DNA from: Pelagomonas calceolata
Taxonomy: Eukaryota > Sar > Pelagophyceae > Pelagomonadales > Pelagomonadaceae
DNA: 64,000 nucleotides
Direction of reading: 5' to 3'
NCBI GenBank assembly: GCA_918797485.1
Contig: CAKKNE010000002.1
Coordinates: forward strand, 5,856,501 to 5,920,500
A program made the position numbers and the translations under genes. A model generated the notes under the pieces. It worked only from the letters and a program-made list of their open reading frames with translations. It searched no databases and was not told the DNA's origin. The stretch's first letter is position 1. The number at the start of each line of letters is the position of its first letter. This document shows, in pieces, positions 8,101 to 64,000 of this stretch.

Positions 8101-11100
8101 AGTAACCCGACCGGCATAGCATGCACAGCGGGCCGTGGGCGTGGGTTTTGCAGAGACCGTTACCATACCCCTCCAGTCCCGGAGAAGAGCCCCGACAGGC
8201 GTCGTCGTCTTCCGGACATCGATAGACGGACGTCGACTCGGGACTGAAACGAAAGAAGTGTTCCTTGACCTCGAGCGTCGCCACGGTCGTGCCGTTCGCC
8301 GCGTTGCACCTTGCGCCCTTCAGCACATAAGCACCCACGTTCTGCCCGCACTGTCGACAGAACCCATCCACCAGGACCCATCCCTGCCGGCAGCACATGG
8401 CCGCGCCGCTCTCGGGCGCGTAGAAATTCTTTGGGCACGGCTCGCAGGGCGTCGGGCCGGTCGCGCTCTTGAACGTCCCGGGGCGACAGGCCTCGCAGCC
8501 TCCCGTCGATTCGTCGAAGAAGCTGCCCTCCGGGCACCCCGTCAAGTCGCATGCGCAGCCCACCGCGCGACCCCCGTCGTAGCAGCCCGGGCCCTGTAAC
8601 CCGCTCGTCGGCTCGCACGTGAAGCCCTGCTCCTCACACTCGCCGCCAACGACGGGGCACGCGTCGACGGCGTACGCGGTCGCTGCGAGGCCGGTGTACG
8701 TCTCGCCGACGTCGTTCCTGTCCGTCTCGAGGGAGACGCTGATGCCCGACGACGCGATGTCGTAGGACTTTTGGAAGGAAGTACTTGTGAGCTCTATGTC
8801 GGTGGCACCGGTGCTCCGGATGACCACCATGTCGCCCTCCTTCGCGGCCGACCGATACGGCTCGAGGTCTAGCGTCTCCACGACGACGCGGACGCTTCGA
8901 CCCGCGGCGGCCTGGAACTCCCAGGTGCAGTCCGCCGCGGCGGGCACCGGCTCGCCCGGCGCCTGCGAGACCATGACCATCGATTCGCCCGTGACCTTAG
9001 GCGCACCATCAAGGCAGTGCGGCACGGTGCAGGCGAGCCCGCCGTAGCCTGTGTCGCAGACGCACGTTCCTCCGTCGTCGCATGTCCCGTGGCCGCCGCA
9101 GTCCGCGTTACTCGCACAGGTGACGCTTTTGGCAACGTAGGTCGCACTGAACCCGCCGCGCCGGCCCCTCGAATCCGACGTAAAGACCAGGCTGGCCTTG
9201 CCGTCCGTCGTCGGCACCAGGATCGTGGCCGTGTCTTCGCCGGAGAGGCGCGCCCAGGTAACGTCACCGCTGTTTACAGATACAAAGTCAAAGGTCGGCT
9301 CGACGTCGTACGTGACAGTGAAGGACACATACCCGAAGCTCGTCCCGACGTCCGCGACGAAGTGGCACTCGGCCGAGTTGGGGTACGGCTCGTCGCGGTC
9401 GGGCGCCGTCGGCGACGAGCGGAATTCGCCCGTCGGGCCCGTCAGCGTCGTCGTGCCGAGGCAGGTCGCGAGCGAGCAGTCGGCGCCGCCGTAGCCCGCG
9501 TCGCACGTGCAGAGGCCCGAGGCGGCGTCACACTTTCCATTGCCGCAGGTCGAGTGGTCGGCGGCACACACCAAAGCTTCCGCGTCGTAGGAAGCGCTCC
9601 AGCCGTCCGTCAACAAGTAGTTGAAGGCGCGCTCCGTGACGCCGTCCGTCGTGAACTTGACGGTCATGTCGCCGGTCGTACGCAGCGGCGGCCAGGCGCG
9701 GTCGAAGCCGTGGAGCTTCGCGACGAGCGTCGAGCCGTCGAAGACCTCGACGAAGTCGCCCGTCCAGACGCGAAACACGGTGAACGTCAGCTCGACGACG
9801 CCGCCGGACGCGATGCGCCACTCGCACGCGAGGTTGTTCGAGTATGATGTCGTGGCACCATCGGTCAACGTTCCAGTCGTCGCCGTCAAATCCACTGTGC
9901 CAGAGCAGGTCGAGTCGGCGCTTTCTGGTATTGACGTGACGCCCGTACCGGCCGTGTCGAGGACGCTAGCCGGTATGCTAGCGAGGCCGTCCGCGAGAGA
10001 TTGAGCAGAAGTCGTCGCCGCGTAGAACGCGTCCTCGTCGACAGTGCCCGCCGGCGCGACCGCCGCGACGGTGTTCGTTTCGAGGTGGAACCGCGCCGTC
10101 GCCTTGAGCGCCGCGGCGATGCCTCCTCCGAGATAATCCGGGCCCTGCATCGTATCTGGAGAAACGAAGGAGAAGTACGAGAGGCCCGCCGCCGCCGTGT
10201 CGAGCTCGGCCTGCGTCGGCGAGGCCGAGGCGCCGTACGCGGCCGCGACGTCAGCCACGAAGCCGCCCGCGCCCGCGCCCCAGCGCGTCGAGGCGTCGTC
10301 GAGGTAGTCCGCGTCCAGCCGCGCGATGACGCCCGCGACGCGCTCGAGGACGTCGGGCCGCCGCGCGGCGAAGTCCGCGCGCGCGCTGATCGTGTTGAAC
10401 GTGGGCTTGCCCCAGTCGCTGAGCACTTGCGCCTGTTTGTTTTTCGTGAGCCTTCCTCTCGCGGTGTTGCGTCGACGGTGCCATCTCTCGTTCTCTCTTC
10501 TCTCTCTCTCTTGGTGGCGGTGGACCCGCGTCGACGGCGTCCAGCCATCGCTGCGGGCCATCCGGACGCTATCGACGCGCATGAAGGTGCCGTGAAATTT
10601 GATTCGCGCACCGCCCCGCGCCGGGAAGAGCATCGTGGCGTTGCGCTGGACCAGGCCGTCGATCCAGCCGCCCCAGACGAAGGCGCCGTCGATCGTGCCG
10701 GCGTCGTACAGGTCCAGGGGGTTCAGCCCGTTTAAATCGATTATGTCAAATCTCACGTCCGGGAACAGCGTCTGGATGTACATCATGTGGTAGTGCGCCG
10801 TCGAGCCAAAGGGCGTGCCGAACGTCCGCCCGTCGAGGTCCGGCGGCGATTGGATTTCGGGCCGCACCAACAACCCCTGCGACGAGCCCTTCTCGTGGGC
10901 CACGTATAAGTGCTTGATGTCGACGCCCCGCGCGACGGCGAAGGCCGCGGGCGTCGACCCGAGCAGCGCCACCTCGAGGTCGCCTTCGTCCAGCTTCGAG
11001 ACCACGAAGCCGCCGCTCGCCTGCGGCAGGCACGCCACCTCCACATCAGAAAAGTCGAACCAGCCGCGCGCGCACGCGACCTGGAACGGCTGCGCTTCCC

Positions 11101-11167
11101 CAAAGTAGCCGAGGCGCACCACCTCCGCCGACGCCGCCGCCGCGAGCGTCCATAACAGGCTGTTCAT
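5120..11167 (-). CDS. Giant receptor-like protein: TauA-like binding domain, CUB/EGF modules, multipass membrane region, RelA/SpoT-like tail
   Basis: The start at 11167 gives a signal peptide (MNSLLWTLAAAASA). Next comes a taurine/nitrate ABC-type solute-binding domain (LGSTPAAFAVARGVDIK; DGAFVWGGWIDGLV; SDWGKPTFNTISARADFA). Then follow about three CUB-like domains separated by EGF modules with CxCDxGYGGxxC spacing (unspliced residues about 415-870) and a GCC2/GCC3-type Cys-rich segment. About six to eight membrane helices follow (about 1045-1430), then a long cytosolic region. Residues about 1765-1940 resemble the RelA/SpoT nucleotidyltransferase fold (KLGDCLRASVVV, VRLKNKLAG, VEVQIVP, SHRLYSIARA). 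A decayed introner at 10433-10613 sits in the binding domain; removing 10433-10621 leaves 1952 residues and a smooth TauA-type sequence. Periplasmic-binding folds outside bacteria often act as ligand sensors, so a nutrient-sensing receptor is inferred. Enzymatic activity of the tail is unproven. Confidence 0.75.
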   Translation of the reverse strand: MNSLLWTLAAAASAEVVRLGYFGEAQPFQVACARGWFDFSDVEVACLPQASGGFVVSKLDEGDLEVALLGSTPAAFAVARGVDIKHLYVAHEKGSSQGLLVRPEIQSPPDLDGRTFGTPFGSTAHYHMMYIQTLFPDVRFDIIDLNGLNPLDLYDAGTIDGAFVWGGWIDGLVQRNATMLFPARGGARIKFHGTFMRVDSVRMARSDGWTPSTRVHRHQERERRENERWHRRRNTARGRLTKNKQAQVLSDWGKPTFNTISARADFAARRPDVLERVAGVIARLDADYLDDASTRWGAGAGGFVADVAAAYGASASPTQAELDTAAAGLSYFSFVSPDTMQGPDYLGGGIAAALKATARFHLETNTVAAVAPAGTVDEDAFYAATTSAQSLADGLASIPASVLDTAGTGVTSIPESADSTCSGTVDLTATTGTLTDGATTSYSNNLACEWRIASGGVVELTFTVFRVWTGDFVEVFDGSTLVAKLHGFDRAWPPLRTTGDMTVKFTTDGVTERAFNYLLTDGWSASYDAEALVCAADHSTCGNGKCDAASGLCTCDAGYGGADCSLATCLGTTTLTGPTGEFRSSPTAPDRDEPYPNSAECHFVADVGTSFGYVSFTVTYDVEPTFDFVSVNSGDVTWARLSGEDTATILVPTTDGKASLVFTSDSRGRRGGFSATYVAKSVTCASNADCGGHGTCDDGGTCVCDTGYGGLACTVPHCLDGAPKVTGESMVMVSQAPGEPVPAAADCTWEFQAAAGRSVRVVVETLDLEPYRSAAKEGDMVVIRSTGATDIELTSTSFQKSYDIASSGISVSLETDRNDVGETYTGLAATAYAVDACPVVGGECEEQGFTCEPTSGLQGPGCYDGGRAVGCACDLTGCPEGSFFDESTGGCEACRPGTFKSATGPTPCEPCPKNFYAPESGAAMCCRQGWVLVDGFCRQCGQNVGAYVLKGARCNAANGTTVATLEVKEHFFRFSPESTSVYRCPEDDDACRGSSPGLEGYGNGLCKTHAHGPLCMLCRSGYFRNSKTKEDLKAVSECVRCDRIGEQMKQLLTVLLMIVAWALVILGIRRLRSRFNRQWFEAVLIQFVYFAMTMSRFVSIHQVPLPGFSQLVMRALDVFTFDLSSLHSIAQCYRTYNYFHFLMLATLGAPALLLVFIVCAVVRAVARVVACGAPAAPQNALAEEGAAAEAVPLHRRVAAAVRQDLGGVLSKWMLLISLFHSAICCAIFQIFNCTVKYEPFDRKFLVSDYSIRCSGPGYEAHKAYAIVCAVIYVTFPLCLFLVLWRPRRLAAGGEEQRKDPRHVDDGALAFLTNNLKAEYWWFEVLAIFLRSLVTGFFRFKADVKISIVLCLIVTIIHRTFVLQLKPYASSGLQHVVEALMRFALSIVLLSVCLVGDLIEDSKDALWMVTLVFLLNVASLPLAYQAFVSESYRGVARRLQAHEPVEAEEVEELLRSAHAEAIREDVRKRSRQILREAFDGKLRDESWTYFTGTLLALEGVWAPEVHAEEVLQWHVESMLARAKKAGGDGAIDAGAVERSVDIVAGPLAATLTEECLSPTAAFERLRRAQPPGGAPITLLRVYAEVLKPFFELDDQHPQKLWHSRKENPVLHLAALARNKSDQISTSLANLHSPPKSPTSPSSFSLSRSSSGVSSARSLLREASDPDDVAPTREENLASGLAKFRRAATKIQIVRAFASAREPRRLERFVDLALIAHDLNQQAQARIAEAAAKVLDEPRGADVVALKSFDNGTDQPALRSAELVAFKDKVGGAALESELDASVCVGALHDLANAAFPAFKKALEKLFPPGTEGVELECAADVAIKKKTRMRAKVDEYRREAKPWPRAEKLGDCLRASVVVAGAEQVVAAYEALAKDDIFKVVRLKNKLAGRVKPFNLLVNLAFQPPAPPGLAPLIVEVQIVPKAIYDKQKASHRLYSIARASNYASFSGKKTAVDTAPEAADDGGDVEAPTAVRPGRHAEVARRPSLMSLPSFLSWTRTSTRPVVAPAPAPRLDAPT
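10433..10613. mobile_element. Introner element, decayed, in the TauA-like gene
   Basis: The ends are degraded (CTGTTTG on the left; GATTCGCGCACCG on the right). Flanks are 10425-10432 and 10614-10621, on the coding strand GCGCAAGT and GCGCGGGG (5 of 8 alike). Removing 10433-10621 with a GC 5' site and the element AG gives NATMLFP joined to AQVLSDWG in phase 0. The intron is 189 bp and open in frame, so automatic gene callers read it through as a Arg-rich insert. Confidence 0.7.
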
Positions 11168-16357: not shown

Positions 16358-17505
16358 ATGACAGACGTCAACTTCGACGAATTCCAAGCCATACGACGAC
16401 GAAAAGCCCAGGACGACGAGGAGGATGAGGACACAAAAGAGGAACCAGCAGCCACACCCAAAGAAGAGGAGGAGGAGGAACCCGACGGCCTCGCGGAGCG
16501 CGCCGGCGCCTTCGCGGAGCTGCCCGAGGTGCAGCTGCTGCTCTGCGTCGCGATCCTCGCGGACGTGGCGGGCGCGGCCGTGACGGCGGCGCGCGACGAC
16601 GGCGCTCCAGCGTTTTTGGTCAGGGCGGCGGCGGCCTTCCCGGGCTTCGTGAACTTCCTGTACGCCTTCGAGCTGCTGGCGCTGGCGACGGCCTTCAAGC
16701 TGCGCATGCTGACGCACCCGGGGCTGCTGCTCGACGTGGGCATCGTTTCCGTACCTCCGGCGTCCTTTGTTTTTTTCGGCGCGTCGATGGCGTTATGGAG
16801 GGCGCACGTCGCGTCGATGGCGTCCGGGGTGGCCCACATCCATGGCTGGCCGCCGTCGACGCGGCTCCACCGCCATCGAGAGATAATTCGTCGAGCTATC
16901 CAACGCCGCCGTGAGAGGACAGAGTTGGTGTGAAGATGGCACTGGACGCCATCGACGCGGTCTTCGCCAACGTCGCTACGCCGCCACCGCGACAGAATAA
17001 AAAGGACAAAAAAACACAGGCCCTCTTCGCCGCCGACCCCGAAGGCAACACCAACACGATCCGCCTCTTGGGCTTCTTAAGGTTGTGGCGCCTGAGCCGC
17101 CTCCACGAGACGCTCGTCGCGGCGGAACGGACGCGAACCGAGGAAAAGGCGCAAGAAGCGCGGACGGAGCGCGAGCGCGCGTTAAGAGCAGAGGTCGAGC
17201 GCGCGCGATTGGAAGGCGTCGCGGCCGAGAGCGCGAACGCACGCCAAAGATTAGAGAAGATGGCGCGCGCGTTCAAGGACGAGATCGACACGCTCAACGA
17301 GGCTTTAGTGATCGCCGCGCGGGACATCGCCGAGGCCGCGGACTCGGAGATCGAGTCCGAGAACGAACGAGAGGGCGGAGATGTACAAGAGGCGTACGCG
17401 CGCGCGCCGAAGGACCTGCGGCGGGCCGAGCCGCGGCCGCCGAAGCAAAAAGCCCCCACTCGCTTCGTCGTGGACCCGTCGGGCGCCTACGAGGCGAAGG
17501 AGTAA
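16358..17505 (+). CDS. HVCN1: Voltage-gated proton channel (Hv1/HVCN1 family)
   Basis: Two exons (16358-16744 and 16936-17505) give 318 residues. An acidic N-terminus is followed by four membrane helices. S1 carries the selectivity-type Asp (CVAILADVAGAA, residue 69). S3 is formed across the junction (GLLLDVGI joined to MALDAIDAVF). S4 contains the family signature RxWRxxR (FLRLWRLSRLH). A long charged coiled coil follows, as in dimeric Hv1. There is no separate pore domain, so the voltage sensor itself conducts protons. The 191-bp GT-AG intron joins in phase 0. Such channels regulate pH or drive action potentials in marine algae; the role here is inferred. Confidence 0.88.
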
Positions 17506-17577: not shown

Positions 17578-18849
17578 TCAGCGCCGGCCAAACGACGTGT
17601 TCTGGACGTCCGGCGCCGCGGGCAGCGCCTCGGGCCGGTCGCCGTCGGTCGGCAGCTCGAGCGTCGCGACGGCGCCGCCTTCGGCGGACGCGAGCGTCAG
17701 CGCGCCGCCGTAGTGCGCCGCGTAAAGTTTTGACATGGGGAGACCTGTGTGGAAATATTGCATGGACGTTCGTGAGCCTCCACGCCATTGAGCCGACGCG
17801 ATCACGAGGACAACATCGCGTCGACGGCGTGGCGAAATTTGATTTCCACACAGGGGCAAACCCATGCCGACGCCCGAAATGGGCTTTTGTGAGCCCGAGT
17901 TGTAGGACCCGCCCGGCTCGTCGAGCCGGTCGTAGCGCGACGACAGGTCCGGCCGGATGCGCAGCAACGCGTCGGGATCCTCCAGGCCGCCGCCGTGATC
18001 GACGATGGATATGGTCGACGCCGCGAGCGCGATCTCGACCGGCGGCAACTCCTCGTCCCAGGCGTCCGAGTTCGGCCCGTGCTTCGCCACGTGCTTCTCG
18101 ATGGTGGCCACCAGCGCGTTCTTTAGTAGCTCGCGCACGACGTGCGTCGCGTGCGCCGGGACACACGCCGCCGCCGAGCCGTCGTCCGCGATGGACACGG
18201 GCGGCGGGTCCGCGAGGTCGTAGGCGTGCTCGCAGACAAGCTGCGCGTCGCCCACCGCCGCCCCGACGACGTTGATGAGCTTGGCGTCGAGGCGAGCGGC
18301 GCCCGTGCCGTGCGCCGGCGGCGCGGCCAGCGTCGCGCCGGGGTTCTCGAGTTCCGGCGCGTGGGCCAGCAGGTGATTCCGCAGCACCGTCGACGCGCCG
18401 ATGTGCGCCGCAAGGAGGTCCTCGAGCAGGCCCGCCGCGGAGACCGGCACGTTGCCCTCGCGCAGCGCGTCGACGACGCTCGGCACGAAGGACGAGTGGC
18501 GCTCCTCGATCGACTTGAACGAGCGGTGCAGCGCCGCGATGTCGGCGTCCGAGGCGCGCGCCGCCGCGGCGATCTCGTCGCCCGCGGCCAGCTCCGTCGC
18601 GACGCCCTTGTAGAGCGCCGTGAGCGTGCCGAGGTCGCGGTTCGTCGGCGCCGTCGCCTCCAGCGCGGTGCAGCGCGCGACCTGCTCCTCGACGCGATCC
18701 GACAATTCGACGTGCGCGCGCTGCGCCGCTTTGATCAGATCCGGGTCCTCCGCGTGTTCGACCAGTTGCTGCAGCGTCCGCGGCGTCGTCGCCATGCATC
18801 GTTTGACGGCTCGCGCCGTTGCGCGACGAATGGTGAGCACTGCTCGCAT
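17578..18849 (-). CDS. Mitochondrial PDK/BCKDK-type protein kinase
   Basis: Exons 17862-18849 and 17578-17744 give 384 residues. The start at 18849 gives a basic amphipathic leader (MRAVLTIRRATARAVKR), typical of mitochondrial import. A four-helix regulatory domain is followed by a GHKL ATPase: N-box (ELLKNALVATIEKH), G1-like box (IVDHGGGL) and G2 (GVGMGLPMSKLYAAHYGG). These kinases phosphorylate and inhibit pyruvate or branched-chain 2-oxoacid dehydrogenase E1; which substrate cannot be decided here. An introner (17745-17853) interrupts the G2 box. Splicing from GT at 17861-17860 to AG at 17746-17745 restores GMGLPMSK exactly; reading through inserts about 39 residues. Confidence 0.85.
   Translation of the reverse strand: MRAVLTIRRATARAVKRCMATTPRTLQQLVEHAEDPDLIKAAQRAHVELSDRVEEQVARCTALEATAPTNRDLGTLTALYKGVATELAAGDEIAAAARASDADIAALHRSFKSIEERHSSFVPSVVDALREGNVPVSAAGLLEDLLAAHIGASTVLRNHLLAHAPELENPGATLAAPPAHGTGAARLDAKLINVVGAAVGDAQLVCEHAYDLADPPPVSIADDGSAAACVPAHATHVVRELLKNALVATIEKHVAKHGPNSDAWDEELPPVEIALAASTISIVDHGGGLEDPDALLRIRPDLSSRYDRLDEPGGSYNSGSQKPISGVGMGLPLCGNQISPRRRRDVVLVIASAQWRGGSRTSMQYFHTGLPMSKLYAAHYGGALTLASAEGGAVATLELPTDGDRPEALPAAPDVQNTSFGRR
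17745..17853. mobile_element. Introner element in the PDK/BCKDK-type kinase gene
   Basis: The 109-bp element runs from CTGTGTGGAAATATT to GATTTCCACACAG on the plus strand. Flanking 8-mers on the coding strand are GTTTGCCC and GTCTCCCC (6 of 8 alike). The 5' splice site is the GT of the upstream 8-mer and the 3' AG is the element end; the intron is 17745-17861. Confidence 0.85.
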
Positions 18850-19136: not shown

Positions 19137-20437
19137 TCAGGGCGCCTTCTGGAACGTCCAGAGCACGAGCCGCCCCTCGACGAGGACCTCCCGGTGCAGC
19201 CGCAGGCCGTGCTTCGCGGCCGACGTCGCCGCCTCGAAGTCGATCTTGTCGAGGTAGCCGTTCAGGTACGGCTCGCCGCTCAGCATGATCGGCGACGGGT
19301 TGTACTCCGGGTGGATGTCGCAGAGCGCGAGCGTCCCGCCCGGCGCGAGCAACCGGAAGCCCTCGCGCAGGATCTGGCGCCGCGCCGCCGCCGGCGCCTC
19401 GTGGAGCAGGAAGAAGACGGAGACGACGTCGGCCTTGCCGCCCGCGAGCCCCGTCGCCTCGGCGTTGTGCCTTTTATAAGTCACGTCGTTGCAGAAGTCC
19501 AGCGAGCCCGTGTTCGTCAGGTCCCTCGCCGCCCGCAGCATCTCGGGCGACGTGTCGACGCCGACGACGGACGCCTGGTACCTTTTTCGCAGCGATCTAG
19601 CCGTGGCGCCCGTGCCCGTGCCGAGGTCGACGCAATTCGTCACGGGCGGCGCGCCGACGATGGTTCGCGCCGCGTCGACGACGTCCCAGGCCGCGTTGCG
19701 CCTGTGTCGAAATCAACCAGTGAGTTAGGCGCGGTTACATCTCCGCGTCGATGGGTGGAAACTCCACGCCATCACGCCATCACGCAGACGCAGCGACGGG
19801 TACAACATCGCTTCGATGGCGTGGGTCGCCAAAAAATTGATTTCCACACGGCGTTGCGCGTGTCCAAGCCGCCGTACGCGAAGGCGTCCAAACCCGCCGT
19901 GAACGTCGGCGCGAGGAACGCGTGCACCGCGCCCGAGGACCCGACGTTGCCCCAGCCGTGGATGCGCGGGTCGGCCCAGTACTTCAAAGCCAGCTCCGGG
20001 AAGTCGGTCTCGTCCTTGTAGCTCCGCTGCTCCGTCGGCTCGAGCGCCGCGGGCGTGAAGGCGCACGGCTTGTTCTTCGCCCACTTCAGGACGTTGTTCT
20101 TGGCGTCCTTCGGGAGCGGCGGCGTCGTCGGCGCGCTCGCGCCGGCGTCGTCCTCCGAGGACGCGAGGTTGGCGCTGGCGCCGTTGTTGAAGTCGTCGGC
20201 TGTCGGCGGCGGCGCGCCGGTTCGTGTGAGTTTCGGCGACGACGCGACGCGCCCGCTGTCCGCCGCGGTCGTCGCAGCGTCTGTTTCCGAGTCGACGGAC
20301 GACAAGGGCGTTTTTGGCGCGAAGAGCGTCGGCGCTTCTTGTTGGCCTGACAGCGGTTTTACGCGCTTGTTGTTATTGAATAAAGGCCGCAACGCTGTCG
20401 CGGCGGTCAGCGCGAGTAACACGACAAGGCTCTTCAT
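19137..20437 (-). CDS. Secreted or plastid-targeted SAM-dependent methyltransferase
   Basis: Exons 19860-20437 and 19137-19701 give 380 residues. The N-terminus MKSLVVLLALTAATALRP is a signal peptide followed by a low-complexity stretch, consistent with ER or complex-plastid targeting. The class I methyltransferase fold lies after the junction: motif I (CVDLGTGTGATARSL), the acidic Asp of motif II (VVGVDTSPEM), and post-I motifs (DVVSVFFLLHE, LAPGGTLALCDI). The substrate is unknown. The introner at 19702-19851 is excised with a GC 5' site, giving GGLDT joined to RNAAWDVVDAA with no residue lost. Without splicing, the methyltransferase domain is out of frame with the leader. Confidence 0.8.
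19702..19851. mobile_element. Introner element in the methyltransferase gene
   Basis: The 150-bp element runs from CTGTGTCGAAATCAACC to TTGATTTCCACACGG, with a perfect 8-bp duplication CGTTGCGC at 19694-19701 and 19852-19859. On the coding strand the duplication is GCGCAACG, so the 5' splice site is GC. The interior carries CCACGCCATC and GATGGCGTGG as an inverted pair. Confidence 0.9.
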
Positions 20438-22836: not shown

Positions 22837-24275
22837 CTATCGCGACGCCGGCACCTCCTCCCTCTGTTCAACCTCCTCCTCCTCGACGGCCTGGTCCTTC
22901 TTCTTGAGGACGTTGCCCCACGACGCGAACTGCTCGAAGGTCTTGGCGCTGAACATGGCGCCGACCATCCGGCCAAACCCTTCCCGCGATCGGCCCACAT
23001 CCCCATTGAACCGCGCGACGACCTCGGCCGGGTCGGGCCGCGGCCAGATCTTGGGAAAGTGCGGGTCCGTCAGCGGGTCGCCGTGCTTCAGCGAGTGGCG
23101 GCCCATGTCCGCGAATTCCACTTTTTCTTTGTCGACGTACGTCGCATCGTCGATCGCGACGGTCCCGCCCAGCACCCGCCGCTTCATGGAGCCCCAGTCC
23201 TGGCTGGTGGGGCCGTCGATCTTGTGGATCGTCCGCGCGTGCCAGACGATCAGATCGCCGGCCTTCGGTCGGAAGGTCGTGAAGTCGTGATATTCGGGCA
23301 AATCGCCCTCGTCGATGTTCACAAACACGGCATCTTCCGGCACGCACTTGTTGTTCTGCGACTTCTTGAGGTAGACGGGCGCGCCGTAGTCCTTGGGCGA
23401 GTCGTCCATCGTGACCCACCACCTTAACGCATTATCGAAGCCTGTGTGTGCATGGATCCGTGAGTTTCGCGTCGCGGCGATGGCGTGGAGGTCGTGATTC
23501 AGCCGCGTGTGGCGCCACGCTATCGAGCAGGCGCCGCGTCGATGGCTCGCGAGGCGCCACGGCGCGCGTCGATAGCGTGCCGGCGCTCGACTCGCCGTCG
23601 CGGCGGCGTGCGAGCGTCAGAGGCGGGCCGCGGGCGCGCTCGACGAACGCCGCACGTCGAGCCAAGCGCAAGTCGCGAAGGAAGCAAAAAAACGGGGACG
23701 CCGCGAAACGAACCGACGGGCCCGTTCTGGTTGTCCTGGTGCCACTTGAAGCCCTTGTTCGGGTTCACCATCAGTAAGTCGGTAGTCACTCGTACCGAGT
23801 CCTTGGCGCCCCCGAGCTGCGCGAGCGCCGTCGACACGGGCGAGTGGTACAAAAACTTGATGAACGCGTCGTTCGTCGTCCAGATGTTGCGCTGGATGTA
23901 ATCATATAAACCCGACGCGACGCCCGGCGACGCCCAGATGTGCGGGTGCTCGACCTGCCAGTCGGTGATCTCCCGCAGGTGCGCGAGCCATTCTTTGTTT
24001 AACAATCCCGGGATGACCACCACGCCTTCCCGCTCGAGCTCGGCCTTCTGCTCGGCCGTGATCTCGAAGGGCGCCGGCGTCGGGTTCCGCTCGTCGCAGC
24101 CGGCGGGCAGCGCGACGCCGGGGTCCTGGTTGTTGTACACATACTCCCAGACATTCACGTCGATGCCGTGCCTTCGGATGCCAGTCCTCGGCGGCGCCGT
24201 GCGCGCGGGCGGCGCGACGAGCGCGAGCGCGAGCGGCAGGGCCGCCGCGGCGGCGTAGATGCGCGAGGGAGCCAT
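22837..24275 (-). CDS. Phytanoyl-CoA dioxygenase-like Fe(II)/2-oxoglutarate oxygenase
   Basis: Exons 23714-24275 and 22837-23441 give 388 residues. A signal or transit peptide (MAPSRIYAAAAALPLALALVAPP) precedes the double-stranded beta-helix fold. The iron HxD pair is visible in KWHQDNQNGPVG. The frame resumes after the intron as FDNALRWWVTMDD, and a distal histidine/Arg region follows (DLIVWHARTIHKIDGPTS). PhyH-like enzymes hydroxylate diverse lipids and small molecules; the substrate is unknown. The 272-bp intron (23442-23713) joins in phase 1 and has an introner-like acceptor (CACACACAG) and inner fragments such as GGCGATGGCGTGGAG. Confidence 0.8.
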
Positions 24276-32626: not shown

Positions 32627-33143
32627 CTACCTGGCCGCCCCACAGCTTCCGCAGAAGCGTGCGTCCGACTTCATCGGTGCGCCGCACTGCGTGCAGAATC
32701 CGGAGGGTGCCGGCGGCGCTGATGCGCCGACGACGACGGCGTTCACGGGCGGCGCCACGCCGAGCACCTGGCCCGTGGCGACTGGCTCGCCGTCCCTGAC
32801 GACAAGTGAGTAGTGCGTGCGCGTGCGCGTGTGGTAGCCGCCGCGGCGGTGGCCGATGGCCGTGTCCGTGCCCACGCCCGTGCCGACGCCGGAGTCGTAG
32901 TAGGTGCTGTAGGTTTGGTAGCTTTCGAGCGTTAAACCGACCCCGTGGCGTTCGTAGTTGGGCGACATGCGGTTGATCGCGGCCTGTGCAGATGATCGCG
33001 TCGATACCCACGCCATCGACGCGGCGTCTCTCTCGAGTGCTGCACCCGACTCACTGGTTAATTTCCACACGGATTGCCGCGGGCACGTCCGTGCTCATGG
33101 CCTTTGAGAGCTGCCGCGCGTTCGCGCTAGCGCAAAGGACCAT
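32627..33143 (-). CDS. Small double zinc-ribbon protein
   Basis: Exons 33081-33143 and 32627-32983 give 139 residues. The N-terminal part contains a repeated Gly/Thr region (SGVGTGVGTDTAIGHRRGG). The C-terminus has two CxxC pairs, CTQCGAPMKSDARFCGSCGA, a classic zinc ribbon. The introner at 32984-33072 splits the gene after STDVP; splicing with a GC 5' site gives VPAAINRMSPNY. The start could also be Met16 (33098). Function unknown. Confidence 0.65.
32984..33072. mobile_element. Introner element in the zinc-ribbon gene
   Basis: The 89-bp element runs from CTGTGCAGATGATCG to TTAATTTCCACACGG. Flanks on the plus strand are ATCGCGGC (32976-32983) and ATTGCCGC (33073-33080), 6 of 8 alike. On the coding strand the upstream 8-mer is GCGGCAAT, supplying a GC 5' site; the element end supplies AG. 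The intron is 32984-33080. Confidence 0.8.
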
Positions 33144-40485: not shown

Positions 40486-41098
40486 TCAGCAGAACCAGTT
40501 CTTGTACGACGCGCACCAGGCGATCATGCGGTCGTACCGCTCGACCGCTGACGCGGCCTTGGCCCGCCGCGCGCGCAGGCCCTTCACTTTTCTGTTAATT
40601 TCGATGCCCTTGTCGACGCAGAGCGATCGCTCGTCCCCGGCCGTCGCATAGAGGCAGCGGCGGTCGATTTGAGCTCGCAACTTGGTGACCGCCTTGAACT
40701 CTCCATCGAAGACTTTGAGCCGTTCCGACTCCACGTCGCGGAGCGACTCGTAGGAGAACATCATCTCCTGGGCGCTTCGATACATGATCGCAAGTACTTC
40801 GTCGCACTTTCCGAGGAAGGTGGAGATGAGGTCCGAGACGACGGCCCGGTCGAAGGCGCGCCTGTGAAACAAATCGTAGCTGAGCCAGCTCGATGGCGCG
40901 CGATTTCCACGCAGAGGCGCGCTCGATCTTCGCGAGGCCCCAGTCGAGGACGGCGCCGAGGCCGCGCGACGGCTTCTGCGGGACGTAGGCGACGACGCCC
41001 GCCGGCGCGGCGAGCGCGCACGACCGCGGGCTCAGTTCCGTCGACGACAGCAAAACTATGGCGACGAGCGCAACGCCGCGGAGGCGTAAGGCATTCAT
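40486..41098 (-). CDS. Secreted or plastid-targeted helical protein of unknown function
   Basis: Exons 40923-41098 and 40486-40861 give 183 residues. The start at 41098 gives a leader (MNALRLRGVALVAIVLLSS) with a possible transit region (CALAAPAGVVAYVPQ). The mature part is helical with KCDEVLAIMYRSAQEMMFSYESL, and a Cys-containing C-terminus (WCASYKNWFC). No family was recognised. Splicing out the small introner gives KIERAFDRAVVSDL. Confidence 0.6.
40862..40914. mobile_element. Introner element, short, in the secreted-protein gene
   Basis: At 53 bp it is the smallest copy. It runs from CTGTGAAACAAATCG to CGATTTCCACGCAG, with a perfect duplication AGGCGCGC at 40854-40861 and 40915-40922. 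On the coding strand the duplication is GCGCGCCT, so the 5' site is GC. The intron is 40862-40922 (61 bp). Confidence 0.85.
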
Positions 41099-45991: not shown

Positions 45992-48534
45992 ATGCGCCGC
46001 GGCCGGCAGCCCCTGGTGGCCGCCGTGCTCGCGCTCACCCGGGCGGCCCGCTGCCCCGACGAGCCCTGGCTGGACTGCGGCGCCGCGCCGCCGCCGCCGC
46101 CGCCGCCCGTGGCGCCGTCCGGCGGCGACCTGTTGCCCGCGGCGGCGGACCCGCTCCTGCTGCCGCGCACGGCCGCGACGCTCGACGGCCACTCGGCGAC
46201 GACCGACGAGGCGCTGAACGCGGCGGGCGCGGCCGGCAACCACACGTCGCACTTCGTCGCGTTCCGCTGCAAGCACTCCATGGGCTACCTCCAGCGGAGC
46301 GCCCACCCCGTGCTGGGGACCAAGGTCGACGTGACGCCCTACTCGGACAAGGAGCTCTTGCCGCCCCGGGAGGCGATCTGGCGGCTGGCCCAGGCGCCGG
46401 GGGGCCTCAGCGTCCTGGAAGCGCTGGACGGCCACCACCTCCTGACGATGCACGGCCGCCTGCGGACGCCGCCCTGGATGCTCTTCGTCGTGCCGCCGGC
46501 GGCGGGCATGGACGCGACGTCCACGCCCGACGACCTGACGTTCCGCGTGGAGCTGGACGAGCGCACGCTGAAGGACGACCGGGAGCGCCGGGCCGACGGG
46601 CGGCTCTACGCCGTCGGCGCCGGGGCCTACGTGAACTGCGTCGACGGGAAGCACCTGCGGGGCCACTCGGGCGGCGCGAACCGGCGCAAGGCGGCGACGC
46701 GCGAACCGTCCACGCTACTCGAGATCTGGACGCTGTCGGCGGCGCAGGCGCGCCGCGCCGAGGCCTTCCGGGAGGCCTACGCGCCCCCTCCCAAAAAAAT
46801 CCTGCAAAAGCCGAAGAGCCCCTTCGGGCTGTTTTCCAAGCCGCTCGCCCCCCGTCCTGCAAAGAAGAAGGGCGCGGGCAGCCCGACGGAGGAGGCGCCC
46901 GTCGGCGGCCACCAGGGGCGCTGCGACGGCGCGTGCGCCGGCGAGCCGCGATCGACCGAGGGCTACTACCCGGCGGCCGTCGAGGCCTTCGCGGGCTTCG
47001 TCTGCCCGTCGGCCTTCCGCGACGCGAGCGACTGGGTCTTCGCCTGGCCCTGGCAGCACTTCTCCGAGAAGGCCTGGGTCGCGCCGACGAAGACGGCCGC
47101 CTCCTGTTTACCCCAAATTCCCGTCGTGTACGCCCACGCCAACCGGGTCCCGAAGACCGTGGACTGGGCCGTCCGGGAGCTGAAGCGGCCCTTCGTGCTG
47201 ATCAGCGGGCAGTCGGACTTTGCGGCCTCGAGGTACAAGCAGGTCCTGGGCCAGAAGCTGCTGCATCGGTGGTACGCGCAGAATGCGGACATGCAACATC
47301 GGAAGCTGCGGCCCATTCCCATCGGCCTGAACTGCTTCGAGCAGGCGCCCGAGATGAAACGCGCCCTGAAAAATATACCGGCCAAGCAGAAGAAGGTCTG
47401 GGTCAACTTCGGCAACACGCACGCGAAGCGCCGGGACGCCTGGCGCTGGTTCTGCGGGGACTTGCCCAAGACGAGCGTCGCCCCGAAGCCCTGGGCGACG
47501 TGCGAAATCAAGAAGACGAAGAACAACGTGCGGAACAACCCCCACCTCGTCGCGTACTACGGGCGCGTCGCGGCGCACCGCTACGTGGCGGCCTGTGTGG
47601 AAATCAACCAGTGCGTCGGGTGCACCCGACAATTCTTCACTAAGTCATTTCTCAGCGATGGCGCGGCCGACCTGGCTCGGACGAGCGGCGAGGAACCGGC
47701 ATCGCCACGCCATCGAGCAGGCGTCGCGTTGATGGCGTAGAGGACGAAACGACGATTCAGCACGAACGCATCGTAAAATTTGATTTCCACACAGGTGGCG
47801 GCGCCCCGCGGGAACGGCCTGGACACGCATCGGCTGTGGGAGGCCCTGTACCTGGGCTGCGTGCCCATCGTCCAGTCCGGGCCGCTCGACGCCCTGTACA
47901 AGCGCGTCGGCGCGCTGGTCGTGCGGTCCTGGACGCAGGTCACGTCCCACTTGTTGGATTCCGAGTACGATCGCCTGGTGGCGATTCAGCGGAACGCCTC
48001 GGATCTCCTCACGCCGGGCCACTGGAAGCGTTTGATCGAGAGCGACCGGCGCGCGGCGATGGACAAGTCGGCGAAGAGCAGTGACCGGGGGCGGTGCTGG
48101 GGGCTCGGGGCCGCGCCGGCGTAAAAGTAGTACTTGTGTGACGCGGCGACGCCATCGACGCGCCACTCCCATTCCTCGCGTTCGCGTCTGCTCCCGGCGA
48201 CGCAGAGCGCGGGACTTCTACGAAGTCCGGCGCGCCGAGCCCGTGCCGCGTCACCAAGGTGAACACGCCCCGCCAGCCGAGCTACCCGCGGCTGCTCGCG
48301 CGCTGCGGCGCCTTCGACTACCGGAAGCTCACCAAGGCGTACTGGTTCTGGGAGATGCGCCGCGACGACCGCGCTCGAGCGGGACCGCCGCCCGACGGCG
48401 AGGACCTGCCGCCGGCGGTGCGGGTGGCGTTCGGGCGGGGACCGGGGCGGCGGCGGCGCTTCTCCGGAAGGGGCGCCGAGGCCGGCCTCGCGAAGCTCCC
48501 GCCGTTCCTCGCGAGACACGTCGCGACAATTTGA
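45992..48534 (+). CDS. Exostosin/GT47-like glycosyltransferase with signal peptide
   Basis: Exons 45992-47584 and 47795-48080 are well supported; a third exon, 48206-48534, is proposed. An N-terminal signal-anchor region is followed by a long Pro/Ala-rich segment. The exostosin-like C-terminal half contains VYAHANRVPKTVDWAV, VLISGQSDFAASRYK, KVWVNFGNTHAKRR, and the typical NGLDTHRLWEALYLGCVPIV (joined across the introner at 47593-47794). Such enzymes add sugars to secreted glycans. Without the third exon the protein ends at 48124 (640 residues). With it, a phase-compatible splice from GTGACC (48081) to GCAG (48205) adds PSYPRLLARCGAFDYRKLTKAYWFWEM and gives 735 residues. Confidence 0.75.
47593..47794. 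mobile_element. Introner element, full-length, in the glycosyltransferase gene
   Basis: The 202-bp element runs from CTGTGTGGAAATCAACC to TTGATTTCCACACAG, with a perfect duplication GTGGCGGC at 47585-47592 and 47795-47802. Splicing from GT at 47585 gives RYVAAPRGNGLDT. The interior holds CCACGCCATCGA and TGATGGCGT, and it is nearly the same element as 53978-54166. Confidence 0.95.
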
Positions 48535-52025: not shown

Positions 52026-53056
52026 ATGGCCTGCAACCAGTGCTTCTGCCTCGCCTGCGTCCGCACGAACACGGTGGCCCTCGTCGAAAGGTGCGGCAAA
52101 TTCCAGGCCATCAAAGGCCCGGGCTGCCAGTGTCTGGTGTGGCCCGTCGATTCTATTGTCGGGCGGGTTTCACTGAGAGTGCGGCAGCTCGACGTGAACT
52201 GCGAAACAAAGACCAAGGATAATGTTTTTGTCAACGTCGTTATTAGCGTGCAATATCAAGTGGTACTCGAGAAGGCCTTTGACGCGTTCTACAAGTTGGC
52301 GAACCCCGAGATCCAGATCCAGGCCTATGTCTTCGACGTCGTGCGGTCGGAGCTGCCGAAGATGGAGCTCGACGAATCGTTCTCGAACAAGGAACAGCTG
52401 GCCAACGAGGTGAAGCACCACCTCGACGAGACGATGATGTCCTTCGGCTACTCGATCATCAAGGCGTTAGTTACGGATATAAGCCCGGACGCGCGCGTCA
52501 AGATCTGTGTGGAAATCAAAATTTTACGGCGCGCTCGTGCTGAATCATCGCGTCGTCCTCCACGCCATCGACGCGACGCCTGCTCGATGGCGTGGCGATG
52601 CCGGTTCCTCACCGCTCGACCGAGGACGGCCGCGTAATCGGGTGCAACTGGTTGATTTCCACACAGGTCAAGATGTCCATGAACGAGATCAACGCTTCTC
52701 GCCGATTGAGGGAGGCCGCCAAGGAGAAGGCCGAGGCCGACAAGATCGTCCAAGTGAAGGCGGCCGAGGCGGACGCCGAGTCCAAGTACCTCTCGGGCGT
52801 CGGCGTCGCGCGCCAGCGCCAGGCCATCGTCGGCGGTCTCCAAGACTCGATCATCGAGTTTAGCGGCGAGATCGCGGGCACGACGCCGAAGGACGTCATG
52901 GACCTGTTGTTACTGACGCAGTACTTCGACATGCTCAAGGACGTCGGGTCCTCCGGCAGCGGCGGCAAGACGTTATTTCTGCCGCACGCGCCGTCGGCCG
53001 TCGGCGATCTGCAGGATTCGCTCAAGAACGGGCTCATGGGGTCGCTGAACAAGTAG
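52026..53056 (+). CDS. HIR-type SPFH/band 7 membrane protein
   Basis: Exons 52026-52496 and 52667-53056 give 286 residues, closely following the plant hypersensitive-induced reaction family. Visible motifs are a Cys-rich, probably acylated N-terminus (ACNQCFCLAC), VERCGKFQAIKGPGCQ, LRVRQLDVNCETKTKDNVFV, FDAFYKLANPEIQIQAYVFD, the coiled coil INASRRLREAAKEKAEADK, and ESKYLSGVGVARQRQAIVGG. HIR proteins form membrane rings and organise plasma-membrane microdomains. The introner lies at VKMSMNEIN; splicing restores ARVKMSMNEIN. Confidence 0.9.
52505..52666. mobile_element. Introner element in the HIR gene, opposite orientation
   Basis: The 162-bp element has a perfect duplication GTCAAGAT at 52497-52504 and 52667-52674. 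Its interior is the reverse complement of the elements at 47593 and 53978. The 5' splice site is the GT of the upstream duplication; the 3' AG is the element end. Confidence 0.95.
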
Positions 53057-53397: not shown

Positions 53398-54560
53398 ATG
53401 CCAGAGCCCAGCGATGCGAACAAGCGCCAGAAACCGGAGGACGCGGCGCCAGCCTTCTCGGACACGATATCGAACTTCGCCGTCGAAGAAACGCTGCGCT
53501 TCGAGGCCGGCGGCCGACTCGCCGTCGTGCTCGGCAAGCTCGACGGCCGGGATTGCGTGCTGGAGCTCAAGCAGCGCGCGGCCCTCGCGGACCCGCGGGC
53601 GCTGGAAGACGCCCTGCCGAAACTGAAGCTCACGCTGACGAACCACTCGGGCGCCGAGTACTCGTACTACGCGGCGACCGACCCGACGACGGGCGCGACC
53701 TACGACCTGGAGGCGGTCTGGCCCGCGCCCGAGCGCCTCGTCCAGCGCAAGCGGCCCGCCGAGATCTGCGTCGTCGAGGAGACCGCGGAGGCCTATGATA
53801 GGGTCGTGCGGCCCTTCGCCGAGGCCCAGGCCGCGAAGATCGGCTGGATCGACGCCGTCTGTGCGCTCGAGAAGGAGCGGGAGCGCAACCTCCACGCCTG
53901 CGACGCTTTCGTCGTCAACGTGGACACGAAGTGGAGCACGCACGGGCCTTTCGACGCGGACCGGGCGACGTGGCGCGCTGTGTGGAAATCAACCAGTGTG
54001 TCGGGTGTACTAAGTCATTTCTCGGCGTATGACGCGGCCGTCCTGGCTCGGTCGAGCGGCGAGGAACCGGCATCGCCACGCCATCGAGCAGGCGTCGCGT
54101 CGATGGCGTGGAGGACGACGCGACGATTCAGCACGAACGCGCCGTAAAATTTTGATTTCCACACAGGTGGCGCGGCGCGGACTGGACGCGCGACTTATAC
54201 CTGCTGGCCATCTCGAAGGACGCGTCGCTCAAGTCGATGCGGGACCTGCGCGGGCCGGACGGGGCGGGGCTCTGCCGCGCGATGCGGGCCGCGCTCTTGC
54301 GATGCGCGGCGGACGTCTACGGCGTCCCCGCCACGAAACTTCGAGTGTTCTTCCACTACCAGCCCCAGTTCTACCGCCTCCACGCGCACTGCACGCGCGC
54401 CGAGCACACGAATCCCGGGTGCGAGTGCGACCGCGCGCACCTGCTGACGACCGTCGCGGCGAATTTGGATCTCGCGCCGGACTACTATGCGCGGGCGCCG
54501 CTGACGTACAAGCTGCGCCTCGGCGAGAAGCTCCACGGGCTTCTGTCGGCGGGCGCGTAA
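53398..54560 (+). CDS. DCPS: DcpS scavenger mRNA decapping enzyme
   Basis: Exons 53398-53969 and 54167-54560 give 321 residues. The N-terminal domain-swap region is followed by the cap-binding half and the HIT motif (VFFHYQPQFYRLHAHCT). The central catalytic His of the HIT triad is present, but the first His is Arg here (usual HxHxH, here RLHAH). Downstream ERAHLL-type helix (CDRAHLLTTVAANLDLAP) and YKLR strand agree. DcpS hydrolyses m7GpppN left by 3'-5' decay. The introner removal restores ATWRGADWTRDLYLLAI. Confidence 0.85.
53978..54166. mobile_element. Introner element, full-length, in the DcpS gene
   Basis: The 189-bp element has a perfect duplication GTGGCGCG at 53970-53977 and 54167-54174. 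It is the same orientation as 47593-47794 and nearly identical apart from a short deletion near the left end. The interior inverted pair CCACGCCATCGA / TCGATGGCGTGG is perfect. Confidence 0.95.
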
Positions 54561-61301: not shown

Positions 61302-62366
61302 TTACGCGCCGTCTACGAGGGCCCTACAGGTCTCCGTGAAGGCCTCGGGCATGCCGTTTTCGCCGAGCGCGTAGCCGCCCTCCAGCCCGAGCGCAACGCG
61401 CGTCCGCGGGTACCGCGCGAGGATCGCGTCCACGGATTGTGCGAAGTCGGAAGGCTGAAGCGTCATCGTCGCGAGGGGGTCGGGCTCGAGCGCGTCGTAG
61501 CCCGAGCACACGAGGAGGCAGTCCGGTGCGGGATCAAGCAGAAAGGGCAGCGCCTTGTCGCGCAGCGCCGCGAAGTACTCGTCCGAGCCCGACCCCTTGG
61601 GCAGCGGCAAATTCAAAATGTTGCCCAGCGCGCCCCGGTCGGACTCGTCCTGGCCCGTGCCCGGGAACCCGCCCGCCTCGTGGATCGAACAGTAGCGCAC
61701 GCGCGGCTCTTGACCGAAGATGGCCGCGACGCCGTTGCCGTGGTGCACGTCCCAATCTAGAATAGAGACGGCCGACCTATGCGGAAATATTGCGTGGACC
61801 TTCGTGAACCTCCACGTGGCGCGCCCGAACTTTGATTTCCACACGGCGGCCGACGCGCCGCCCTCCAGCGCCTTGGCTACGGCCGCGCATGCGTAGTTCA
61901 CGAGCCCAAAGCCCATGGCCGTCGTCCGCGTCGCGTGGTGGCCCGCGGGCCGACTGAGAGCGAAGGCCGGGCCCTCGTCGTCCACGGCCAGCGCGACGGC
62001 GTCGGCCCAGGCCCGCGTGCCGTCCAACACGGCCTCCCAGCTCCCCGGCGCGCAGTACGTGTCCGTGTCGAAGCCGCCTCCCGTTTGGGACATGGCCTGG
62101 ACCTCGCGCAGGTGGTCGACGTCGTGCACCAATTTCAGCGCGTCGACGGCGTCGAAGACCGTGCACGTCGTCGAGTTCACCGCGTTGCGCCAGTCTTTGA
62201 CTTTCACGTCCGACGCGAGGAGGGCCGCTTTTGCACTTTCCAACCTTTCGGGCACTTCGGCGTGGTTGGCGGACGGCGGGCGGTGGAGCTTGTGCAGGGA
62301 CTGCTCGATGATGGTCAAGGCTTGCAGCGTGGCGAGCAGGGGCAGGAGGCGCAGGAGTGGCTGCAT
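61302..62366 (-). CDS. Histone-deacetylase-like/acetylpolyamine-amidohydrolase enzyme with leader
   Basis: Exons 61855-62366 and 61302-61776 give 328 residues. A signal-like N-terminus (MQPLLRLLPLLATLQALT) precedes the arginase/deacetylase fold: RPAGHHATRTTAMGF (His-His), ILDWDVHHGNG (zinc Asp/His), SGYDALEPDP (zinc Asp region) and EGGYALG. The zinc ligands appear intact. Class II HDACs and polyamine deacetylases share this pattern. The leader suggests an ER or plastid location. Introner excision gives GASAVSILDWDVHHGNG. Confidence 0.82.
   Translation of the reverse strand: MQPLLRLLPLLATLQALTIIEQSLHKLHRPPSANHAEVPERLESAKAALLASDVKVKDWRNAVNSTTCTVFDAVDALKLVHDVDHLREVQAMSQTGGGFDTDTYCAPGSWEAVLDGTRAWADAVALAVDDEGPAFALSRPAGHHATRTTAMGFGLVNYACAAVAKALEGGASAAVWKSKFGRATWRFTKVHAIFPHRSAVSILDWDVHHGNGVAAIFGQEPRVRYCSIHEAGGFPGTGQDESDRGALGNILNLPLPKGSGSDEYFAALRDKALPFLLDPAPDCLLVCSGYDALEPDPLATMTLQPSDFAQSVDAILARYPRTRVALGLEGGYALGENGMPEAFTETCRALVDGA
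61777..61846. mobile_element. Introner element, short, in the deacetylase gene
   Basis: The 70-bp element runs from CTATGCGGAAATATT to GATTTCCACACGG, with a perfect duplication CGGCCGAC at 61769-61776 and 61847-61854 (coding strand GTCGGCCG). The intron is 61777-61854, 78 bp. Confidence 0.9.
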
Positions 62367-62859
62367 TTTGCTCTGCAGTGCCTGGCAGTATCAATGCGCG
62401 ATTAGCAATGCTTGCAGCAGCAAGCCAAAAAAGTGATGCCGAGTCCAGCAGGCGCAGCTGCTCAGGCTCAGGCTCAGGCTTGCTTGGTACAATAATATTA
62501 TGACATTGTCATGCGGCATCCCTAGTGTCTTACAGGCCGCTAGCTCAGCAACTCGAGACCCCTGCTGTCAGGTATGGTACAACACGCAAAGAGACGCGGA
62601 GAGAGGGTCGAGCGGGCTGTGAAAAAGCAGGTAGTGGGAGGGATGGGGGCCCTGATGAGGCGCTGGCGGAGTTGGCTCGCGGCCCCGCGTTCAGTCAATA
62701 ACGGTATGCAGCCATTCATGCTCGGAGATAGTCATTTGTGCAAGTATTGACGAGTGCAGCGGCAATCGTTAAGCAAATCGGCCAAAAAACCACTGGTGCA
62801 GCCCTGCAGTGGCTGCAACAGCCACCGCGGAGCACCCGAGGCGAATCGCGGAGCACCCG
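62367..62859. promoter_or_regulatory. Divergent intergenic region
   Basis: The 493-bp gap contains the consensus CTAG-bounded motif (62521-62544) and a short AGGCTC tandem near 62462-62478. No RNA gene was seen. Confidence 0.45.
62521..62544 (+). repeat. CTAG-bounded intergenic motif, consensus copy
   Basis: CCTAGTGTCTTACAG then GCCGCTAGC, with the upstream GGCATC also shared with copies at 39425 and 49484. Confidence 0.85.
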
Positions 62860-63846: not shown

Positions 63847-63854
63847 GCGAGAGC

Positions 63855-64000
63855 CTGTGTGGAAATCAAAATTTAACGGCGCGTTCGTGCTGAATCATCG
63901 CGTCGACCTCCACGCCATCGACGCGACGCCTGCTCGATGGCGTGGCGATGCCGGTTCCTCGCCGCTCGTGCACCCGACGCACTGGTTGATTTCCACACAG
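63855..64000. mobile_element. Introner element at the window edge
   Basis: This 146-bp element runs from CTGTGTGGAAATCAAAATT to TTGATTTCCACACAG, ending at the last base of the window. The upstream 8-mer is GCGAGAGC (63847-63854). Its interior is the reverse complement of 47593 minus about 50 bp. The downstream duplication is outside the window. Confidence 0.9.

What the first reader, a model, noticed from the sequence alone, without database searches (positions are those of the whole stretch)
10433..64000. Eleven introner elements, each using its own target duplication as 5' splice site
Copies at 10433, 17745, 19702, 32984, 39036, 40862, 47593, 52505, 53978, 61777 and 63855 share inverted ends and have 8-bp flanking direct repeats (perfect in six complete copies). 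In all ten complete cases the frame is restored only when the 5' splice site is the GT or GC starting the upstream repeat and the 3' site is the element's CACAG/CACGG-side AG. Introners in Aureococcus are known (DNA-transposon-like, with duplications, Huff and colleagues 2016); the specific set and the rule are read here directly.
Basis: partly seen in the sequence, partly recalled or inferred. Interest (0 to 1): 0.85.

Follow-up and report, generated by a model that had tools for sequence, protein, structure and literature searches.

The report
Transposon-made introns in Pelagomonas calceolata
Small jumping DNA elements have landed in the genes of an abundant ocean alga and appear to be cut out as ready-made introns, each using the first two bases of the DNA it duplicated on landing as the intron start; this is a known kind of element in a host where it was only hinted at before, with some unusual splice-site features.

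Summary
Six of ten complete copies have perfect 8-bp duplications; the eleventh, completed beyond the window, is perfect too. The genome holds 1,562 exact ends (control 0); 1,495 have GT/GC at the outer end of the adjoining 8-mer on at least one strand (chance about 34%). With the gene strand called from codon usage alone, GT/GC sits on the sense side in 60 of 61 copies and on the antisense side in 11 of 61, the background rate: the rule reflects splicing, not target preference. Frames join in 42 of 42 callable copies; AG is kept at the sense 3' end in 65 of 65. Homology and the GY rule pick the duplication start. Oddity: no donor consensus past GY, though U1 looks canonical. No mobilising transposase found. 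New member of a known kind. No RNA evidence was available.

The parts
10433..10621 (-). Predicted intron: divergent introner 10433-10613 plus GC-starting upstream copy (5/8) at 10614-10621, in an NMT1-like substrate-binding/CUB protein gene
   Evidence: End scan and flanks; frames agree; NMT1 match runs across the junction, 31.1 bits exact vs 29.3 with +12 nt vs 28.7 retained
17745..17861 (-). Predicted intron: introner 17745-17853 plus GTTTGCCC at 17854-17861 (6/8), in a mitochondrial PDK/BCKDK-type kinase gene
   Evidence: HATPase_c and PDK2 alignments continuous over SGVGM|GLPMSK; 31.7 bits exact, 27.3 with +12, 26.4 retained
19702..19859 (-). Predicted intron: introner 19702-19851 plus GCGCAACG (8/8, GC donor), methyltransferase gene
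   Evidence: junction lies before the Pfam domain, so homology says nothing here
32984..33080 (-). Predicted intron: introner 32984-33072 plus GCGGCAAT (6/8, GC donor), near the 5' end of a gene
   Evidence: only the downstream exon side scores as coding; a short upstream ATG exon would be in frame (letters; not shown to be real)
39027..39094 (+). Predicted intron: strongly diverged element 39036-39094 with GT 9 bp upstream, TPR protein gene
   Evidence: best frames join if 68 nt are removed, not 67; no duplication recognisable
40862..40922 (-). Predicted intron: introner 40862-40914 plus GCGCGCCT (8/8, GC donor)
   Evidence: no Pfam family for the protein
47585..47794 (+). Predicted intron: GTGGCGGC (8/8) plus introner 47593-47794, GT47 exostosin-like gene
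   Evidence: GT47 match (24.5 bits, below Pfam's cut-off) crosses the junction; no match at E 0.001 with +12 nt
52497..52666 (+). Predicted intron: GTCAAGAT (8/8) plus introner 52505-52666, SPFH/Band-7 gene
   Evidence: Band_7 111.5 bits across the junction vs 103.2 with +12 nt
53970..54166 (+). Predicted intron: GTGGCGCG (8/8) plus introner 53978-54166, DcpS-like gene
   Evidence: junction lies in an insertion relative to DcpS; 49.8 vs 49.0 bits with +12 nt
61777..61854 (-). Predicted intron: introner 61777-61846 plus GTCGGCCG (8/8), histone-deacetylase gene
   Evidence: HDAC alignment passes EGG|ASAV with a one-residue gap just before it; 187.1 bits exact, 184.3 with +12, 171.7 retained
63847..64000 (+). 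Predicted intron: GCGAGAGC (8/8, GC donor) plus introner 63855-64000
   Evidence: second duplication copy lies just beyond the window
16792..16883 (+).
   Evidence: blastn 86% to the 10433 copy, E 6e-18; frame change
23469..23549 (-).
   Evidence: 73 blastn matches, best E 7e-10; frame change and a CTGTGTGTG-like end just left of the match

Best explanation
The elements are non-autonomous DNA transposons (MITE-like introners) of Pelagomonas calceolata. Each has inverted ends CTGTGTGGAAATCAA ... TTGATTTCCACACAG, and insertion duplicates a host 8-mer. The end carries a branch-site-like TTGAT, a short TTTCC tract and the acceptor CACAG; because the ends are inverted copies, an insertion in either orientation presents an acceptor to a gene read on either strand. 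The donor is supplied by the host: the GT or GC that starts the upstream copy of the 8-mer. Removing duplication plus element restores the pre-insertion mRNA. Shown here: ends, duplications, the genome-wide GY rule, its confinement to the sense strand, frame continuity, sense-only retention of AG, better homology of the exact splice. Inferred: that the spliceosome uses these sites, the branch point, that insertions without a sense GY were lost because they were not spliced, and mobilisation by a transposase that I did not find.
For: Ends and duplications. Genome counts: 1,562 exact ends, control 0; 987 preceded by GYN6, 1,002 by RC, 494 by both, so 1,495 of 1,562 carry GY on at least one strand; background GY frequency 0.185. 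Strand called from codon usage of flanks only: 61 of 75 copies callable, sense GY 60 of 61, antisense GY 11 of 61. Frames agree in 42 of 42 callable of 65 sense-assigned copies. AG kept at the sense 3' end 65 of 65; its complement CT kept at the sense 5' end 55 of 65. Ends without the AG complement (CVGTG...) should lie on the 5' side: 112 of 124 have GYN6 in front, against 987 of 1,562 intact ends. No other AG between the putative branch A and the acceptor in 65 of 65. The exact splice scores above the +12 isoform in 6 of 6 genes tested and above retention in 3 of 3. Both orientations relative to the gene: 25 and 18 of 65, 22 unclassified.
Against: No RNA data. 67 of 1,562 exact ends lack GY on both strands. 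12 of 124 CV ends lack GY. 39036 and 10433 have little family sequence. No empty site was seen: 11 of 11 C1 regions compared are intact in the duplicated C5 copy too. Frame alone allows other GY-AG pairs. Homology margins are small for 53978 (49.8 vs 49.0 bits) and 10433 (31.1 vs 29.3), and GT47 is below Pfam's cut-off. The C1 sample was picked by an exact end and so leans to young copies.
Confidence: 0.9

Rival explanations
1. The element carries both splice sites: the donor is the GT at positions 5-6 of the 5' inverted end, so splicing leaves the 8-bp duplication plus CTGT, adding four codons. This mode is reported for an Aureococcus sp. metagenome genome.
For: 12 nt keeps the frame; the GT+12/AG pair is listed as frame-compatible and open in 7 of 9 copies (the printed lists were cut at 14 pairs and those of 10433 and 39036 do not show it). 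63 of 65 sense-assigned copies keep GY at element positions 5-6, and none of 42 shows an in-frame stop in the added stretch. PMC9860276 Fig. 2F legend.
Against: It predicts no constraint on the first two bases of the duplication, yet sense GY is 60 of 61 against 11 of 61 antisense. The exact splice gives higher Pfam scores in 6 of 6 genes, though by little in two. The stop-free added stretch is expected anyway, because the upstream 8-mer copies coding sequence in frame. It may still be a minor isoform, especially where the donor is GC.
Confidence: 0.06
2. The GY rule reflects a target preference of the transposase, and the elements are ordinary MITEs that need not be spliced.
For: GY at one end or the other of 1,495 of 1,562 targets.
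Against: A target preference has no reason to follow the gene strand; GY is at background on the antisense side, loss of the AG complement is confined to the sense 5' side, frames join in 42 of 42, and in 6 of 9 window copies retention would bring a stop or a frame shift into the gene.
Confidence: 0.02
3. The repeats are an older transposon family whose members became introns secondarily and whose duplications are chance.
For: 13 of 65 C1 copies match at 6 or fewer of 8 positions.
Against: 33 of 65 have 8/8 and 19 have 7/8; full-length copies are up to 95.6% identical.
Confidence: 0.01

Closest known systems
Introner elements of Aureococcus anophagefferens and Micromonas pusilla (Huff, Zilberman and Roy 2016; not held; what I know of it is recalled or from passages of other papers)
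   Same: Pelagophyte host for Aureococcus; PMC7789003 (passage) says A. [quoted passage not shown] PMC9860276 (section 8) calls some algal introners MITE-like with duplications and inverted ends; PMC9481584 (passage) notes a 210-bp intron-length peak in P. calceolata like that of A. anophagefferens introners
   Different: Different genus; sequence relationship could not be tested because I had no Aureococcus genome to search
Symbiodinium microadriaticum introners (PMC9860276 Fig. 2B legend, section 7 read)
   Same: Inverted ends, acceptor carried by the element, donor taken from the duplication
   Different: 4-bp duplication there, 8-bp here; unrelated host
Aureococcus sp. TARA_AOS_82_MAG_00129 introners, family 4 (PMC9860276 Fig. 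2F legend, and passage)
   Same: 8-bp duplication; assigned there to a pelagophyte genus
   Different: Both splice sites carried and 12 bp added to the mRNA; not the main mode here
MITEs with 8-bp duplications (hAT, P, Merlin-like; recalled)
   Same: Short, inverted ends, 8-bp duplication
   Different: Ends CTGTG do not fit the recalled hAT pattern; the one hAT element found has CAGGG ends

Membership tests
Introner elements | Many similar introns at unrelated positions in many genes | tested here: met
   72 of 75 copies (65 from C1, 10 of the window) in one similarity cluster; 1,562 exact ends
Introner elements | Removal of the element restores the reading frame | tested here: met
   42 of 42 callable copies of 65
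Introner elements | Splice sites formed by element end and/or duplication | tested here: met
   by sequence only: sense GY 60 of 61, sense AG 65 of 65
Introner elements | RNA evidence of splicing | not testable with these tools
   no RNA reads or transcripts among the tools
Introner elements | Recent gain: presence/absence at orthologous sites | tested here: inconclusive
   11 of 11 compared C1 regions have the same DNA in the C5 duplicate; no relative's genome compared
TIR DNA transposon / MITE | Inverted ends and fixed-length duplication | tested here: met
   8/8 in 33 and 7/8 in 19 of 65
TIR DNA transposon / MITE | Cognate autonomous element with the same ends | tested here: inconclusive
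   PF05699 one hit, no introner end in the 9.9 kb around it; PF18758, PF21787 and PF10551 no hit; for the first two of these no control genome rang either; other families not searched
hAT superfamily | 8-bp duplication | tested here: met
hAT superfamily | Ends beginning C/TA(G/A)NG (recalled) | tested here: not met
   ends begin CTGTG
Aureococcus sp. type that carries both splice sites | Donor inside the element, 12 bp added to the mRNA | tested here: not met
   sense GY at the duplication start 60 of 61; exact splice scores higher in 6 of 6; a minor isoform is not excluded

The most novel reading that the evidence does not exclude
The donor site of these introns is chosen by position rather than by sequence: a canonical U1 faces donors that carry almost no information beyond GY, 29% of them GC, and the site used is usually not the best U1 match nearby, so the inverted end (or its RNA hairpin) 8 nt downstream acts as a ruler that fixes the donor. 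Each transposition would then create an intron wherever GY happens to stand 8 nt from the element, and the duplication length of the transposase would be part of the splicing code.
Probability: 0.25. Interest if true: 0.8.

Novelty: new member of a known kind. Interest (0 to 1): 0.5.

Why it matters
Introners are a leading answer to how introns arise in bulk. A family of this size in a chromosome-scale 32-Mb genome of an ocean-wide alga gives a natural experiment: hundreds of introns with a shared acceptor but nearly random donors. Two open questions become directly testable with RNA-seq of this species: how little donor sequence a spliceosome with a canonical U1 needs, and how GC donors perform against GT in near-identical intron bodies. 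It also corrects the host species.

Tried and rejected
Autonomous partner: Pfam families PF05699, PF18758, PF21787 and PF10551 were searched in the genome. One hAT was found, with its own CAGGG ends and TTGCTCGC duplication and no introner end within the fetched 9.9 kb at up to 3 mismatches. MULE gave no hit though its control rang in 3 of 14 genomes; for KDZ and PF21787 no control rang, so absence is not shown. Viral carriers: one exact 21-base pattern scan of viral contigs found none. Empty sites in the C1/C5 duplication: none in 11 regions; of the 13 sampled C1 regions below 393 kb, L013 and L016 were not compared. The +12 donor was tested and judged minor; its stop-codon test was dropped as uninformative, since the duplicated 8-mer was coding to begin with. 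Hairpin of the ends as an obligatory signal: the two copies folded (52505, 47593) pair their ends, but window copies with strongly diverged ends still follow the rule, so it is not clearly required.

The C1 sample: 100 listed ends of 1,562 gave 71 regions, all fetched. 65 complete elements were called; 11 of 71 regions gave none under the pairing rule. On inspection 5 of these 11 (L019, L025, L034, L037, L067) have a recognisable partner end or an 8/8 duplication; the other 6 (L017, L027, L053, L055, L068, L074) have no convincing partner within about 600 bp, so a longer element is not excluded there. Sense assignment dropped 9 of 65 C1 copies as ambiguous. Genome counts include copies in the duplicated chromosome ends and are not fully independent.
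Full report
WHAT IS THERE. The ten complete ones are 53-202 bp long; adjoining 8-mers are identical in six, 6/8 in two, 5/8 in one and not recognisable in one, 39036. The eleventh ends exactly at the window edge; one further fetch shows its second 8-mer, GCGAGAGC, identical to the first.

WHERE IT COMES FROM. The window is G000:C2:5856501-5920500; the assembly has 32,445,274 bases in 8 contigs. C7 is 90,574 and C8 39,373 bases. Eleven regions near the start of C1 have 98.4-100% identical counterparts near the start of C5. The Pelagomonas calceolata RCC100 paper (PMC9481584; passages) describes six nuclear contigs totalling 32.4 Mb, a 90-kb plastid, a 39-kb mitochondrion and a 393-kb duplication between ends of contigs 1 and 5. 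I therefore take the host to be this species (Pelagophyceae), not Aureococcus; no marker gene was compared. The same paper says that the intron length peak near 210 bp is characteristic of the introners of A. anophagefferens and refers to a supplementary note that I could not read. So introners here have been hinted at in print.

IS IT SPLICED? No RNA was available, so I used five tests. (1) Genome counts: 1,562 exact ends against 0 for the reversed control; 987 are preceded by GYN6, 1,002 by RC and 494 by both, so 1,495 of 1,562 have GY on at least one strand, against about 34% expected from the window's GY frequency of 0.185. (2) Strand: among 65 complete copies sampled from C1 plus ten of the window, the coding strand was called from codon usage of the flanks alone in 61 of 75; the sense end has GY in 60 of 61, the antisense end in 11 of 61, i.e. 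background. The one exception is 39036, with GT one base further out. A target preference would not follow the gene strand. (3) Frame: 42 of 42 copies with confident frames on both sides join in frame. (4) Acceptor: AG is present at the sense 3' end in 65 of 65 sense-assigned copies (56 of the 65 from C1, nine ambiguous ones dropped, plus nine of the window), while its complement at the sense 5' end is lost in 10 of 65. Genome-wide, 124 ends have another base in place of that T; on this reading they should be 5' ends, and 112 of 124 have GYN6 in front, against 987 of 1,562 intact ends; 12 of 124 do not fit. (5) Homology: spliced proteins match PDK/BCKDK kinase, SPFH, DcpS, histone deacetylase, NMT1-like and weakly GT47 families across the junction; of the nine proteins scanned, one had no Pfam family and in two the junction lies outside the matched domain. 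The exact splice scores above a 12-nt-longer isoform in 6 of 6 (31.1/29.3, 31.7/27.3, 24.5/none, 111.5/103.2, 49.8/49.0, 187.1/184.3 bits) and above retention in 3 of 3.

Within 30 nt of the predicted sites, each of nine copies has 4 to 26 GY-AG pairs that keep the frame, the predicted pair included, and three copies stay open and in frame even if retained. Frame alone does not choose the donor. A GT 12 nt inside keeps the frame in 7 of the 9 as listed, and a donor with that geometry is reported for an Aureococcus sp. metagenome genome (PMC9860276, section 7 read). The GY rule and homology favour the duplication start; the other may be a minor isoform.

HOW IT PROBABLY WORKS. The inverted end read on the sense strand, TTGATTTCCACACAG, holds a branch-site-like TTGAT with the A 12 nt from the end, a short pyrimidine tract and the acceptor (the branch point is inferred). 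As the other end is its complement, insertion in either orientation serves a gene on either strand: 25 copies have the CCAGTG subterminal motif next to the sense 5' end, 18 next to the sense 3' end, 22 neither. The host 8-mer supplies the donor. Of 65 sense-assigned copies 46 have GT and 19 GC. As dinucleotides GC is 2.4 times commoner than GT here (0.131 and 0.054), so GT is about six-fold favoured but GC is well tolerated. A GC share of 29% is not unprecedented: PMC9860276 gives 0 to 50% GC donors across introner families. Positions +3 to +8 lie close to background, with A at +3 in 8% and G at +5 in 32%. Two U1 candidates were found, both below Rfam's cut-off (64.3 and 58.0 against 69.5 bits) but with the canonical 5' end AUACUUACCUG. 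The predicted donor is the best or joint best U1 match among GY from -15 to +60 in only 12 of 65 copies, and 33 of 46 GT users have a strictly better GT there; still, its mean rank fraction is 0.40 where 0.5 would be chance, so sequence may have a small say. Something besides donor sequence must help to define the site; distance to the inverted end is my most novel reading, not shown.

MOBILISATION. Full-length copies are about 203 bp and the closest sampled pair is 95.6% identical; no identical pair was seen, so how recent the activity is remains open. The genome search found one hAT, with complete ends (CAGGGCAGCAGAAGGGCAAG, 20/20) and an 8-bp duplication; its ends differ from the introner's and no introner end lies within the 9.9 kb fetched. 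KDZ (PF18758), the RNase-H-like PF21787 (P-element type by recall) and MULE (PF10551) gave no hit; for the first two no control rang either, so absence is not shown.

NOVELTY. New member of a known kind. Paper searches for introner with Aureococcus, with target site duplication and splice site, with Pelagomonas, with transposase and autonomous, with GC-AG, for introner elements with nucleosome-sized exons, introner from 2022 on, and Pelagomonas calceolata with intron listed no title or abstract start that treats this family; the only mention I saw is the sentence in PMC9481584. I saw listings, passages of PMC9481584, PMC7789003 and PMC12768974, and sections 7 and 8 plus passages of PMC9860276. 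Huff et al. 2016 is not held.

Noticed in passing
L010:3950-7600 (G000 C4): A complete-looking hAT element, 3,651 bp, perfect 20-bp ends, 8-bp duplication TTGCTCGC, 721-aa open frame with a hAT dimerisation domain; a stretch at element positions 2532-2598 is 88% identical to the introner interior, so it seems to carry an old introner.
   Followed up: partly
sense 5' inverted end, position 2 (sample of 65 copies): The T of CTGTG at the sense 5' end is changed in 10 of 65 copies, against about 1.5 on average for the other 14 positions; C, G and A all occur, and each unpairs the A of the acceptor AG in the hairpin of the ends. Tolerated variation or selection to free the acceptor (124 such ends genome-wide).
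   Followed up: partly
L082 and L083 (G000 C1): Two U1 candidates with canonical 5' ends but scores below the Rfam cut-off (64.3 and 58.0 against 69.5 bits).
   Followed up: partly
window 26394, 45795, 45842, 53115: Repeated 29-nt motif like GTGCTAGGACTAGTGGGCGGAGCCCCTGC, four copies, 79-97% identical to the reference copy.
   Followed up: no
window 45902-45928 and 62518-62544: Perfect 27-bp inverted pair GCTAGCGGCCTGTAAGACACTAGGGAT, 16.6 kb apart.
   Followed up: no
window 33288-33390 and 53183-53285: 103-bp repeat, 83% alike, outside the introners.
   Followed up: no
window 15132-15286: Tandem array of a 31-bp unit.
   Followed up: no
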